DNA of 64,000 nucleotides from Yersinia artesiana. GTDB taxonomy: Bacteria; Pseudomonadota; Gammaproteobacteria; Enterobacterales; Enterobacteriaceae. Positions 4,031 through 61,615 of this stretch are shown piece by piece. The position numbers and the translations under genes were made by a program. The notes under the pieces are model-generated. The model ran no database searches, was not told the DNA's origin, and saw only the letters and a program-made list of their open reading frames with translations. The first letter of the stretch is position 1, and the number at the start of each line of letters is the position of its first letter. The stretch spans positions 1 through 64,000 of the forward strand of contig NZ_CACVAD010000028.1 in assembly GCF_902726545.1 (NCBI RefSeq), read 5' to 3'.

Positions 4031-4157
<127 letters not shown>

Positions 4158-4195
4158 AAAAGGTTACGTCAGAGAAAACGTAATCGATTGCGTAG

Positions 4196-45400: not shown

Positions 45401-45585
45401 GAGCCGGTGCCGAACTGCGCCAGCCGCTCGGGGTCTGTATGGTCGGTGGGCTGATTGTTAGTCAGGTGTTGACTCTGTTTACCACACCGGTTATTTATCT
45501 GTTGTTCGATAAACTGGCACGCAATACCCATAATCATCAGGATATTGATACACCAGCCTTGCCGAATGGACGGGAACAGCCGTGA
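42442..45585 (+). CDS. mdtB: Multidrug efflux RND transporter MdtB
   Basis: One of two different RND subunits that form a heterotrimer (MdtB2C). The 1047-residue protein (E. coli 1040) has 12 predicted membrane helices, two large periplasmic loops, and the proton-relay segment [23 protein letters not shown] with paired Asp residues in helix 4. The C-terminal [15 protein letters not shown] block is typical of the family. It is coupled to mdtA by a one-base overlap and to mdtC by four bases. Confidence 0.97.
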
Positions 45586-48500
45586 AATTCTTTGCTCTGT
45601 TTATTCAGCGCCCAGTGGCCACCACGCTGTTGACACTGGCGATAACACTCAGTGGAGTGATCGGCTTTAGCTTATTGCCGGTTTCACCGCTACCGCAAGT
45701 CGATTACCCAGTGATTATGGTCAGCGCCTCCATGCCCGGCGCGGATCCGGAAACCATGGCGTCATCCATTGCCACACCACTGGAGCGCGCACTGGGAAGA
45801 ATTGCCGGGGTCAATGAAATGACCTCAACCAGTTCATTGGGTAGCACGCGGATTATTCTGCAATTTGATCTCAGCCGCGATATTAATGGCGCAGCTCGTG
45901 ATGTGCAGGCCGCACTCAACGCCGCTCAGAGTTTGCTCCCATCAGGGATGCCCAATCGCCCGACCTATCGCAAGATGAACCCGTCGGATGCGCCAATCAT
46001 GATAATGACCCTGACCTCGGATACTTTCAGTCAGGGGCAATTATATGACTTTGCCTCAACCCAACTGGCGCAGAAAATTGCCCAGACCGAGGGGGTCAGT
46101 GATGTCTCCGTCGGTGGCAGTTCCCTGCCAGCGGTGCGGGTAGAACTTAATCCAAGTGCGCTGTTCAATCAGGGCGTGTCGCTGGACGCGGTGCGTCAGG
46201 CGATCAGTGCCGCTAACGTGCGCCGCCCGCAAGGTTCAATCGACAGCAGTGAACAACACTGGCAGGTGCAGGCCAATGATGAGATCAAAACGGCCGAGGG
46301 TTATCGCCCGCTTATCATTCACTACAACAATGGCTCTCCGGTGCGGCTACAAGATGTCGCTAATATCGTCGATTCTGTGCAGGATGTGCGCAATGCCGGG
46401 ATGTCTGATGGCAAGCCGGCCGTGCTGTTGGTGATCAGCCGTGAGCCGGGCGCAAATATTATTGCCACTGTCGATAGAATTCGCGCCGAGCTCCCTGCCC
46501 TGCGCGCCTCGATCCCCGCCTCGATTGAGTTGAATATTGCTCAGGATCGCTCGCCGACTATCCGCGCCTCACTGGATGAAGTGGAGCGTTCACTGGTGAT
46601 CGCCGTGGCATTGGTGATTTTGGTGGTGTTTCTGTTCCTGCGATCAGGCCGTGCCACCTTGATCCCCGCTGTCGCCGTGCCGGTTTCGTTGATCGGCACC
46701 TTTACTGCCATGTATTTGTGCGGTTTTAGCCTCAATAACCTGTCGCTGATGGCGCTGACCATCGCCACCGGTTTTGTGGTTGATGATGCTATCGTGGTGC
46801 TGGAGAATATTTCCCGCCATCTGGAGGCGGGCGTGAAACCGATGGCTGCCGCCTTGCGCGGGGTGCGCGAAGTCGGTTTTACCGTGCTGTCGATGAGTAT
46901 TTCTCTGGTGGCGGTGTTTATTCCGCTGCTGTTGATGGAAGGGTTACCGGGGCGATTATTCCGTGAGTTTGCCGTCACATTGTCAGTGGCAATTGGTATC
47001 TCGTTAGTTATTTCGTTGACCCTGACGCCGATGATGTGCGCCCATTTATTACGTGCACAGCCGGCAGGGAAACAACAACGTATTCGTGGCTTAGGTAAAG
47101 TGCTGATGGCTATTCAGCAAGGTTATGGTCGCTCGCTCAATTGGGTGCTGGGCCATACACGCTGGGTAATGGTTGTGCTGCTTTCCACTATTGCTCTGAA
47201 TGTTTGGCTCTATATCAGCATTCCCAAAACCTTTTTTCCCGAGCAGGATACCGGCCGCATGATGGGCTTTATTCAAGCCGATCAGAGTATTTCGTTTCAG
47301 GCGATGCAGCAAAAGCTGAAAGATTTTATGAAAATTGTCAGTGCTGACCCGGCGGTCGATAATGTCACTGGTTTTACCGGCGGTTCGCGCACCAACAGTG
47401 GCTCGATGTTTATCTCATTGAAACCACTAAGTGAACGCAATGAAACGGCGCAACAAGTGATTACCCGGTTACGTGGAAAATTGGCAAAAGAGCCGGGAGC
47501 CAGCCTGTTCCTCTCTCCGGTACAAGATATCCGTGTTGGCGGCCGACAATCTAACGCCAGTTATCAATTTACGTTATTGGCCGACGATTTAGCGGCTCTG
47601 CGTGAATGGGAACCGAAAGTGCGGGCTGCTTTGAGCAAGTTACCAGAGCTGGCGGATGTTAACTCCGATCAGCAGGATAAAGGCTCGGAAGTGGCCCTGA
47701 CGTATGACCGCGAAACTATGGCGCGGCTGGGTATCGATGTGTCAGATGCCAATGCGTTGCTCAATAACGCCTTTGGTCAGCGGCAAATTTCCACCATTTA
47801 TCAGCCATTGAACCAATACAAAGTGGTGATGGAAGTCGCCCCTCAATACACGCAGGATGTGAGTTCGCTGGATAAGATGTTTGTGATTAACAGCGCAGGC
47901 CAGTCTATCCCGCTGTCCTATTTCGCTAAATGGCGGCCCGCCAATGCGCCGTTGTCGGTTAATCACCAGGGCTTATCGGCTGCCTCAACTATCTCATTTA
48001 ACTTGCCCGATGGTGGCAGCTTGTCTGAAGCGACAGTCGCCATTGAGCGGGCGATGACGGAACTGGGTGTACCAAGCACAGTGCGCGGTATGTTTGCCGG
48101 TACGGCGCAAGTGTTCCAGGACACCTTGAAATCCCAGCTCTGGCTGATTATGGCGGCGATCGCCACGGTGTATATCGTGCTGGGGATTTTGTATGAAAGT
48201 TATGTCCACCCGCTGACCATTCTTTCAACACTGCCCTCTGCGGGAGTCGGGGCATTACTGGCGCTGGAGCTGTTCGATGCGCCCTTTAGTCTTATCGCCC
48301 TGATTGGCATCATGCTATTGATTGGTATCGTAAAAAAGAACGCCATCATGATGGTCGATTTTGCCCTTGATGCCCAACGCAATGGCAACCTTAGCGCCCG
48401 CGATGCCATTTTCCAGGCCAGCCTATTGCGCTTTAGGCCGATTTTGATGACCACCTTGGCTGCCTTATTCGGCGCGCTACCCCTGGTGTTAAGTAGCGGC

Positions 48501-48656
48501 GATGGTGCCGAACTGCGCCAACCGCTGGGGATTACCATTGTCGGCGGGCTGGCGATGAGCCAATTGCTCACTCTGTATACCACGCCGGTGGTTTACCTCT
48601 ATTTTGACCGGCTGCGCAGCCGCTTTAGCAAAAAACCGTTAATGAGACTGGAATAA
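45582..48656 (+). CDS. mdtC: Multidrug efflux RND transporter MdtC
   Basis: The second RND subunit of MdtABC. The 1024-residue protein starts with GTG overlapping the mdtB stop by four bases (GTGA), the same architecture as MdtB with [23 protein letters not shown] in helix 4 and [18 protein letters not shown]. It is full length compared with E. coli (1025). An ERIC array follows immediately, separating it from mdtD, to which it is directly joined in E. coli. Confidence 0.97.
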
Positions 48657-48689
48657 TTTATTATGAAATGCCCAATAGCTTTTAAATTG

Positions 48690-48728
48690 CAGCCAACACA
48701 GCAGCAGGTTGAAAGATGACAGCCTATC
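48690..48728 (+). repeat. ERIC right-end fragment
   Basis: TTGCAGCCAACACAGCAGCAGG followed by TTGAAAGATGACAG resembles the right end of the complete ERIC that starts at 48729 (GCAGCCAACGCATCTGCGGG, TTGAAAGATGACGG). It suggests an older ERIC was partly deleted or that the insertion occurred next to an existing copy. Confidence 0.65.
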
Positions 48729-48926
48729 TATACCCTATAGATTTCAAGTTGCAGGAAGGCGGCAAGCGAGTGACTAATCGGTTGAAAACCGATTTGAACA
48801 GCATTTATGCTAGCCCGCAGGGTGAGCCTCTTTGAGGCTCATTAATCCCGATGAGCTTACACCAGTAAGTGATTCGGGTAAGCGAGCGCAGCCAACGCAT
48901 CTGCGGGTTGAAAGATGACGGGTATA
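48729..48926 (+). repeat. ERIC element with 71-bp insert, overlapping the mdtD start
   Basis: The element runs from TATACCCTATAG to GACGGGTATA and is 198 bp, i.e. a 127-bp ERIC plus a 71-bp insert (48774-48844). The insert contains AATCGGT/ACCGATT, AGCAT/ATGCT and GAGCCTC/GAGGCTC hairpins. It sits after GAGTGA in the left arm, whereas the insert in the 26005 copy sits after GGGTGA in the right arm. The last 12 bases of the ERIC are the first four codons of mdtD. Confidence 0.92.
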
Positions 48927-50324
48927 CGTTGGCAACTGTGGATAGTGGCCTTCGGCTTCTTCATGCAAACGCTGGACACCACCATCGTCAACACTGCCCT
49001 GCCCTCAATGGCGGCCAGCTTGGGCGAGAATCCGCTGCGCATGCAGTCGGTGATCGTCTCCTATGTGCTGACGGTGGCGGTGATGTTACCCGCCAGTGGC
49101 TGGTTGGCGGATAGAGTGGGCGTTAAATGGGTATTTTTCTCCGCCATTATTTTATTTACCCTCGGCTCATTACTGTGCGCGCAAGCTGAAACCCTGAATG
49201 AGCTGATTTCTTCCCGCGTCATTCAGGGGGTTGGCGGTGCCATGATGGTGCCGGTTGGCCGCCTGACGGTGATGAAAATCGTCCCGCGCGAGCAATATAT
49301 GTCAGCAATGGCATTCGTCACATTGCCCGGTCAGATTGGGCCATTGGTCGGGCCTGCGCTGGGCGGTTTTTTGGTGGAATATGCCAGTTGGCACTGGATA
49401 TTTTTAATCAATTTACCCGTCGGAGTGGTCGGTGCATTAGCCACTTTATGGTTGATGCCCAATTACACCACCCGCACCCGACGCTTTGATATCAGTGGTT
49501 TTATTATGTTGGCTATCGGTATGGCAACCCTGACACTGGCGCTGGACGGACACAAAGGATTGGGTCTGCCGCCGCTGGCGATTGTCGGTCTGGTATTGTG
49601 CGGAATATTAGCACTGGCCGGTTACTGGTGGCATGCCAAAGGTAACAGTTCGGCACTGTTCACACTGCGGTTATTCAACAATAAATCTTACTCTCTTGGC
49701 CTGATAGGCAGCATGAGCGCCCGTATCGGCAGTGGCATGTTGCCATTTATGACGCCGGTTTTCCTGCAAATCGGGCTGGGATTTACCCCCTTCCATGCCG
49801 GTTTGATGATGATCCCGATGATTATCGGCAGTATGGGCATGAAACGGATTATCGTGCGCGTGGTCAACCGTTTCGGTTACCGGCGGGTGTTGGTCAGTGC
49901 CACATTGTTGCTGGCGGTGGTCAGTCTCTGCTTCCCATTGGTAGCTTTGATGGGATGGACATTACTATTGCCGGTCGTGTTATTTTTACAGGGAATGCTC
50001 AACGCCCTGCGCTTCTCCACAATGAATACATTAGCGCTGAAAGATCTCCCCGATCGCCTGGCCAGCAGCGGCAATAGTTTATTGTCGATGGTGATGCAGT
50101 TATCCATGAGTCTGGGGGTCAGTACCGCCGGGATATTGCTCGGCGTATTTGCTCATAATCAGGTGGTGACGAATACCCCGGCGACCCACAGCGCGTTCTT
50201 ATACAGCTATATCTGTATGGCTATTATTATTGCGCTGCCCGCCCTGATATTTAACCGTGTGCCACCGGATACCGGCACTAACCGTAATCTGCCTCGCGCA
50301 TCCGCGAAAGCGGCCAACCGATAA
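48915..50324 (+). CDS. mdtD: Major facilitator transporter MdtD
   Basis: MdtD is a 14-helix drug:H+ antiporter-type (DHA2) transporter encoded with MdtABC but not part of the tripartite pump; E. coli MdtD has been connected with citrate or iron-citrate export. The 469-residue protein matches from [29 protein letters not shown] onward, with motif [11 protein letters not shown] and motif C GPALGGF. A stop codon (TGA) lies two codons before ATG 48915, and the first helix begins at once, so this ATG, inside the ERIC end, must be the start. The ribosome-binding site is weak (GGGTTGAAAG). Confidence 0.93.
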
Positions 50325-61367: not shown

Positions 61368-61496
61368 TATCCCCGTCATCTTTCAAGTTACAGGTGTGTT
61401 GGCTGCTCTCGCTTACCCGAATCACTTACTGGTGTAAGCTCATCGGGGTGCCCTCGTTTGCCGCCTTCCTGTAACTTGAAATCTATTGGGGCTATA
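61368..61496 (+). repeat. ERIC element, first of a tandem pair
   Basis: The sequence TATCCCCGTCATCTTTCAAG to CTTGAAATCTATTGGGGCTATA is a full ERIC in the same orientation as the 4031 copy. It starts one base after the gutQ stop. Confidence 0.92.
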
Positions 61497-61615
61497 TTTT
61501 TGTTGTCATCTTTCAAGTTGCAGGTGTGTTGGCTGCTCTCGCTTACCCGAATCACTTACTGGTGTAAGCTCATCGGGGTGCCCTCATTTGCCGCCTTCCT
61601 GTAACTTGAAAACAA
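61497..61615 (+). repeat. ERIC element, second of a tandem pair
   Basis: It repeats the preceding element at a 130-bp period with very few changes over about 105 bp (for example TTACAGG to TTGCAGG, CTCGTTTG to CTCATTTG). Its terminal TATACCC-type ends are degraded. Confidence 0.92.

What the first reader, a model, noticed from the sequence alone, without database searches (positions are those of the whole stretch)
48729..48926. An ERIC repeat supplies the start codon of mdtD
In E. coli mdtC and mdtD are directly joined. Here a 198-bp ERIC follows mdtC, and the first four codons of mdtD (ATG ACG GGT ATA) are the terminal repeat of the ERIC. A TGA two codons upstream in frame rules out an earlier start, and the first membrane helix begins within ten residues, leaving no useful later start. 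The insertion apparently removed the original start, and the repeat end was adopted. It may also alter mdtD expression relative to mdtABC, since the ribosome-binding site is weak and the ERIC can fold into a long hairpin in the mRNA.
Basis: partly seen in the sequence, partly recalled or inferred. Interest (0 to 1): 0.75.

Follow-up and report, generated by a model that had tools for sequence, protein, structure and literature searches.

The report
Mobile repeat supplies gene's start codon
A small mobile DNA repeat sits at the front of a membrane-transporter gene, and the gene appears to start inside the repeat's end; several related bacteria share this, and in most of them the repeat can also be read as a short leader that stops exactly where the transporter starts.

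Summary
A 198-bp ERIC (48729-48926) lies between mdtC and mdtD, and its right end carries mdtD's only good start codon (ATG 48915; in-frame TGA at 48909). The history is only partly right. G006 and G012 lack this ERIC, yet start mdtD in a 61-bp ERIC remnant whose counterpart also lies in the window. Of 17 genomes of the genus with mdtD (25 searched, own included), 10 start it in an ERIC end, G010 has an ERIC end plus its own start, 6 have no ERIC. The original start was perhaps not lost: an ATG stands -4 to +6 nt from the mdtC stop. In 9 of 10 complete ERIC junctions an ATG frame, or relay of two, runs from there to a TGA overlapping the ERIC ATG (ATGA). Other ERICs are open in that frame in 0 of 58 (own genome) and 6 of 43 (eight congeners). 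The window is the exception: its frame stops 79 nt short, leaving only a TTG bridge. mdtD dN/dS is 0.015-0.066 in ERIC pairs. Best reading: a domesticated repeat end, kept coupled to mdtC by an ERIC-encoded leader. Coupling is inferred, not shown.

The parts
45582..48656 (+). mdtC, RND efflux permease; its stop is where translation would be handed on
   Evidence: NCBIfam MdtC equivalog, 2102 bits against a cut-off of 1774
48663..48719 (+). leader ORF1, 18 codons, ATG 6 nt after the mdtC stop; ends in ATGA overlapping the next ATG (48716)
48668..48720 (+). older short ERIC remnant (left end fused to right end); the matching 61-bp element supplies the mdtD start in G006 and G012
48716..48835 (+). 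leader ORF2, 39 codons, starting at the remnant's ATG and running into the 198-bp ERIC; stops 79 nt before the mdtD start
48729..48926 (+). 198-bp ERIC: TATACCC...GGGTATA ends, about 71 bp longer than the 127-bp form
   Evidence: no Rfam match reaches a gathering score
48832..48918 (+). possible leader ORF3 (TTG start overlapping the ORF2 stop, 28 codons), ending in ATGA over the mdtD start; weak evidence
48909..48911 (+). TGA in the mdtD frame, two codons before its ATG, inside the ERIC end; excludes an earlier start
48915..48926 (+). ERIC terminal repeat used as the first four codons of mdtD (MTGI)
48915..50324 (+). mdtD (DHA2-type MFS transporter; renamed IceT in work on iron and citrate efflux)
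   Evidence: name and function from PMC4462101 (one passage)

Best explanation
An ERIC transposed into the first codons of mdtD (or at the mdtC-mdtD join) in an ancestor within this genus. Its right end carries TGA-AAG-ATG-ACG-GGT-ATA, and the ATG opens straight into the conserved R-W-Q-L-W body, so the repeat end became the start codon. The old start codon stayed beside the mdtC stop and now opens an ERIC-encoded leader that ends at the TGA of the ATGA overlapping the new start. Ribosomes finishing mdtC would read the leader and restart on mdtD by termination-reinitiation. Later ERIC insertions, tandem copies and internal deletions changed the leader's length but left the relay open in 9 of 10 complete junctions; in the window a second, longer ERIC has weakened it. 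Shown: the sequences, the distribution, the open frames, the purifying selection. Inferred: use of the start (about 0.9), coupling through the leader (about 0.55), that the upstream ATG is the old start, and the order of insertions (unresolved).
For: Start in the ERIC end in 10 of 17 genomes with mdtD; an ERIC-end-like motif before mdtD in 0 of 28 enterobacterial loci of other genera, 400 nt scanned (or what the locus holds), 28 of the 80 loci. Leader or relay ending at +4 (ATGA) in 9 of 10 complete ERIC junctions, leaders of 18 to 341 codons (in G010 the overlap is with the ERIC-end ATG, 9 nt before its own). Control by one script: frame open in 6 of 6 mdtD elements and 6 of 43 other evaluable ERICs, from 60 fetched of 140 end matches in eight congeners (Fisher p = 6.6e-5); in 0 of 58 others in the own genome. 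Gene-side element lengths at mdtD found in seven congeners (127 four times, 61, 82, 124 or 139) are all 1 modulo 3; the window's 198 is not. mdtD dN/dS 0.015-0.066 in 12 ERIC pairs, 0.038-0.074 in four ERIC-free pairs, a fifth undefined. Five of 6 ERIC-free genomes were measured: mdtD starts +1 to +33 nt after mdtC. Of 10 own-genome ORFs of at least 150 codons opened by an ERIC end, 7 of the 9 others have a family alignment that begins at or after a later ATG or GTG; mdtD's begins at residue 3. Overlaps of 4 nt couple translation, and gaps of about 20 nt nearly abolish it (PMC10666635, abstract).
Against: No expression or proteomic data. In the window itself the ATG relay is broken: ORF2 ends at -79, and only a TTG start bridges the gap. 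The leader frame is partly ERIC's own, and relatives share descent, so the counts are not independent; a simulation keeps a 43-codon leader stop-free in 18-30% of trials at 0.45 substitutions per site and an 18-codon one in 39-52%. Leader residues are not conserved: about 4 amino-acid changes to 1 silent in ORF1 of G000, G018, G006 and G012, by eye. mdtD is missing from 8 of 25 genomes, so it is dispensable. Start-region opening cost lies above the ERIC-free range in only 4 of 10 ERIC junctions.
Confidence: 0.6

Rival explanations
1. The ERIC end supplies the start codon, but there is no functional leader: mdtD is translated by direct initiation at the ERIC ATG, and the leader frames merely reflect ERIC's own open frame.
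For: Anti-SD pairing at the ERIC start is -2.9 to -6.9 kcal/mol in the nine genomes run (G005 not run, G010's ERIC end -8.7), against -3.1 in E. coli L032. Short leaders stay open by chance fairly often. In the window the relay is interrupted, yet mdtD dN/dS against its sister G018 is 0.050. Leader residues drift.
Against: Other ERICs are open in this frame in 0 of 58 and 6 of 43; the leader start sits at the mdtC stop in all 10 complete ERIC junctions.
Confidence: 0.33
2. The ERIC start is hardly used; mdtD is a decaying gene that survives without selection, or starts at codon 11 or 17.
For: Eight of 25 genomes lack mdtD, at least 7 changes on the mdtC tree.
Against: mdtD dN/dS is 0.015-0.066 in ERIC pairs; all 17 copies are open from R(W/A)QLW to the first stop, 457-468 codons; later starts would cut into the conserved body.
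Confidence: 0.07

Closest known systems
ERIC / IRU / RU-1 elements of enterobacteria (non-autonomous MITE-like repeats)
   Same: Terminal TATACCC/GGGTATA, hairpin, many copies per genome; the five best E. coli rows are 83-85% identical in the right half (the best place is under 80% in 2507 of 5305 records)
   Different: The end is used as the start codon of a conserved operon gene, and the inner frame is open as a leader at this locus
ERIC/RU open-reading-frame fusions (Delihas 2007, PMC2759123; first part and passages seen)
   Same: Repeat sequence becomes part of protein-coding genes; for the other repeat RU-2 (YPAL) N-terminal parts are reported in Yersinia (YP_0349, YPO1552)
   Different: Its RU-1 (ERIC) frame is on the reverse complement, and the two RU-1 cases seen here extend C-termini (ECA3499, ECA0168). 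'Start codon' does not occur in that text. Here an ERIC end gives the start and the forward strand gives a leader
BOX repeats of pneumococcus (PMC3049150, passage)
   Same: Part of the repeat (boxC) encodes the start codon of a transcribed ORF
   Different: Those ORFs were not conserved operon genes in the passage seen; the repeat family is unrelated
ERIC effects on mRNA in Yersinia (De Gregorio 2005, seen only through passages of PMC2229807, PMC10969869 and PMC3049150)
   Same: ERIC co-transcribed inside operons
   Different: That work is described as RNase E cleavage and lower stability of the upstream transcript, not translation of the downstream gene; the original is not held
Termination-reinitiation at 4-nt ATGA overlaps (PMC10666635, abstract)
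   Same: Stop of the upstream frame overlaps the next start by 4 nt
   Different: The overlap is brought in ready-made by a mobile element, and the upstream frame is an ERIC-encoded leader

Membership tests
ERIC element | Terminal repeats TATACCC...GGGTATA | tested here: met
   48729 and 48926
ERIC element | Many similar copies in the genome and in other enterobacteria | tested here: met
   67 matching pieces, query included; 83 end matches, control 0; 5293 of 5426 E. coli genomes
ERIC element | Length about 127 bp | tested here: not met
   198 bp here; ten other copies of 188-202 bp by best left end in the same genome, so a length class of the family; congener elements at this locus are 127, 124 or 139, 82 and 61 bp
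ERIC element | Folds into a stable hairpin as RNA | tested here: met
   -96.4 kcal/mol, z -4.3, 0 of 200 shuffles as low (stretch 48700-48960)
ERIC element | TA target duplication | tested here: inconclusive
   TA stands at both ends, but the left neighbour is the older remnant and the empty site was not written out
MdtD | Curated family score and place between mdtC and baeS | tested here: met
   890.9 bits against 426; MdtC upstream and BaeS downstream by NCBIfam
Termination-reinitiation pair | Upstream frame ends in a short overlap with the downstream start | tested here: met
   +4 overlap in 9 of 10 complete ERIC junctions; in the window only through a TTG frame
Termination-reinitiation pair | Downstream translation depends on upstream translation | not testable with these tools
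   needs reporters or ribosome profiling

The most novel reading that the evidence does not exclude
The ERIC right end is a portable stop-and-restart cassette. Its forward frame can be read and ends in TGA overlapping ATG (ATGA), so an ERIC that lands in the first codons of a co-translated gene can be tolerated at once: the old start translates the repeat and the ribosome restarts in the gene. In this genus selection has since kept that relay open, even through an eight-unit tandem array that reads as a 341-codon frame in G002.
Probability: 0.35. Interest if true: 0.7.

Novelty: new variant of a known kind. Interest (0 to 1): 0.55.

Why it matters
ERICs are widely used for strain typing and mostly treated as intergenic hairpins (recalled). 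A case spread through a genus in which an ERIC end is the start codon of a selected operon gene, with the repeat readable as a leader that hands ribosomes on, would show how a MITE can enter a translated operon without breaking it. It makes a directly testable prediction about reinitiation. It also warns that gene callers need care at ERIC borders.

Tried and rejected
Idea that ERIC ends supply start codons widely: not supported. In the own genome 10 of 83 ERIC-end matches open an ORF of at least 150 codons in the ATG frame (one with GTG), against 4 and 7 in the two other frames. Of the 20 such loci other than mdtD that were looked at (9 own, 11 congener), 19 have a later ATG or GTG 8-24 codons on; mdtD has GTG 11 and ATG 17, but inside its conserved body. 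A family scan of the 9 own ones: in 7 the alignment begins at or after the later start (PduG-type reactivase, glycerophosphodiester phosphodiesterase, peptide symporter, PheS, fumarate reductase flavoprotein, Rht/Leu-type exporter, YihI); L174 matches only far downstream and L226 matches nothing, so these two stay open. The 11 congener loci were not scanned. Burial of the start in the ERIC hairpin: not consistent. A conserved leader peptide: rejected, residues drift. Whole-gene transfer to explain G010 and G013/G014: not supported, both trees place G010 with G005 and G013/G014 near G002; one old insertion with losses against repeated insertions stays open (2 changes on the mdtC tree with 20 rows scored, 4 left out and G008 not in it; a G001 scrap that looks ERIC-free by eye would add to this). 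Rfam: only sub-threshold matches. In one search the Serratia row failed to find its start and the row for 48717 is one base off; neither is used. Literature: searches listed no title or abstract on an ERIC-supplied start; two showed only 10 of 1,526 and 12 of 47 papers; only openly licensed PMC papers are covered, and De Gregorio 2005 is not held.

Full report
WHAT IS THERE. The window holds mdtC-mdtD-baeS (NCBIfam), preceded by an mdtB-like paralogue of mdtC and an ORF in the place of mdtA (that name is by order only). Between the mdtC stop (48656) and the mdtD start (48915) lie 258 nt. Of these, 48729 onward is a 198-bp ERIC whose last 12 bases are the first four codons of mdtD. An in-frame TGA at 48909-48911 excludes an earlier start, and the next candidates are GTG at codon 11 and ATG at codon 17. 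The family alignment runs from residue 3 (profile position 7), so only the extreme N-terminus differs. ERIC identity rests on the ends, on 83 end matches in the genome against 0 for a backwards-pattern control, and on matches in 5293 of 5426 E. coli genomes.

A SECOND, OLDER ERIC. Just upstream, 48668-48692 and 48689-48720 resemble the left and right ends of the ERIC (80% and 88%): a short element with its middle missing. In G006 and G012 this 61-bp element is the only ERIC present, and its right end supplies ATGACGGGTATA to mdtD. G018, the nearest relative in both trees, has both elements, the second in the 127-bp form. The ERIC-end start is therefore not tied to the 198-bp copy. Whether G006 and G012 show the older state or lost a second ERIC by recombination between the two right ends is open.

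THE GENUS. An mdtD orthologue (84-100% identical) is present in 17 of 25 genomes, own included (the others are unnamed). By junction: 10 start mdtD in an ERIC end (G000, G018, G005, G006, G012, G003, G002, G007 reading MTGI; G024 MTNI and G020 MTSI, each two mismatches from the motif); G010 has a degenerate ERIC end followed by its own ATG in the same frame; 6 show no ERIC end (G013, G014, G022, G016, G008, G021). Eight genomes lack mdtD (G001, G004, G009, G011, G015, G017, G019, G023); mdtC is followed by what looks like baeS, and in four of them ERIC scraps remain, by eye. This presence pattern needs at least 7 changes on the mdtC tree. A paper states that all Enterobacterales have MdtD (PMC7015380, one passage); these eight genomes do not. 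Of 28 enterobacterial loci of other genera (of the 80 loci), 0 have an ERIC-end-like motif in the 400 nt scanned before mdtD, or in what the locus holds. On the mdtC tree ERIC junctions are spread over a clade of 21 genomes (support 88/83), with ERIC-free G013/G014 nested in it; one gain with losses and repeated gains are both possible.

THE LEADER. Complete ERIC junctions are ten: the genomes named above plus G010, without G020, whose contig breaks inside the ERIC. In all ten an ATG stands between -4 and +6 nt of the mdtC stop. In 9 of 10 (all but the window) the frame from that ATG, or a relay of two frames, ends at a TGA overlapping the ERIC-end ATG by 4 nt (ATGA): single leaders of 18 (G006, G012, G010), 27 (G024), 40 (G007), 43 (G003) and 341 codons (G002, eight tandem ERIC units), and relays of 18+43 (G018) and 61+43 (G005). 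In G010 this ATG lies 9 nt before its own start. In the window ORF1 (18 codons) ends in ATGA on ORF2, but ORF2 (39 codons) ends 79 nt before mdtD; only a TTG-started frame (48832-48918) bridges the rest.

IS THE OPEN FRAME SPECIAL? The same reading frame was scored in other ERICs. Own genome: of 83 end matches (up to 3 mismatches, so a few may not be ERICs), 70 keep ATGA and lie far enough from the locus edge, and 59 have a recognisable left end; 0 of 59 are open across the element, the window's own mdtD element included. Eight congeners: 140 end matches (up to 1 mismatch), 60 fetched, 49 evaluable, open in 6 of 6 at mdtD and 6 of 43 elsewhere (Fisher p = 6.6e-5; with the own genome 6 of 7 against 6 of 101, p = 3.2e-6). 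The left-end rule was 7 mismatches and 8. These counts are not independent, since loci recur between species and mdtD elements share descent, and a neutral simulation shows short leaders surviving often. I read this as suggestive, not conclusive. Leader residues are not conserved, so any selection would be on the frame, not on a peptide.

IS MDTD REALLY USED? All 17 copies are open from R(W/A)QLW to the first stop, 457-468 codons. dN/dS is 0.015-0.066 in 12 pairs of ERIC genomes and 0.038-0.074 in four ERIC-free pairs (a fifth was undefined); it is mostly, not always, above that of mdtC. A gene with no usable start would not be expected to look like this.

MECHANISM. Most likely the old start codon, left beside the mdtC stop, now starts an ERIC-encoded leader, and ribosomes restart on mdtD at the ATGA brought by the ERIC end. 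Published reporter work says such overlaps couple translation and gaps of about 20 nt nearly abolish it (PMC10666635, abstract). The main rival is plain direct initiation at the ERIC ATG; pairing with the 16S tail is mediocre (-2.9 to -6.9 kcal/mol in nine genomes; E. coli L032 -3.1). Start-region opening energy exceeds the range of five ERIC-free congeners (7.3-12.7 kcal/mol) in only 4 of 10 junctions (G003, G002, G005, G010: 16.0-19.1).

COMPARISON WITH WHAT IS KNOWN. MITE and ERIC open reading frames fused to genes are known, including N-terminal contributions of the Yersinia repeat RU-2 (PMC2759123, PMC2229807, PMC10969869; part and passages seen). ERIC effects on transcript stability in Yersinia are known to me only second-hand. 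A pneumococcal BOX element encoding a start codon is described in PMC3049150 (passage). I found no account of an ERIC-supplied start or of an ERIC leader relay in the listings of searches. MdtD itself is reported not to be needed for drug resistance and to be linked to iron and citrate efflux (PMC4462101, one passage).

Noticed in passing
G002 locus L096, between mdtC and mdtD: Eight tandem ERIC units (129-nt period) form one 341-codon open frame overlapping the start of mdtD; by eye the inner unit borders lack the ATGA, only the gene-side end has it.
   Followed up: partly
L124, L125, L126, L129, L130, L133, L134, L140: mdtD missing in eight genomes of the genus; mdtC is followed by what looks like baeS, with mdtD or ERIC scraps in several.
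   Followed up: partly
window 4031-4163 and 61368-61577, minus strand: Further ERIC copies in the window; the second place looks like two ERICs in tandem.
   Followed up: no
L205, L227, L149, L159, L186, L161 (own genome): ERIC ends directly upstream of, and in frame with, known gene families that have a later start 9-18 codons on; automatic annotation could extend these proteins wrongly.
   Followed up: partly
L104 (G008): G008 has mdtD, but no MdtC match at E <= 1e-200 was found; the upstream DNA still resembles the end of mdtC by eye.
   Followed up: no
L102 (G022), mdtC-mdtD spacer: An ERIC-free 33-nt spacer also holds a 12-codon ATG frame that overlaps the mdtD start by 7 nt.
   Followed up: no
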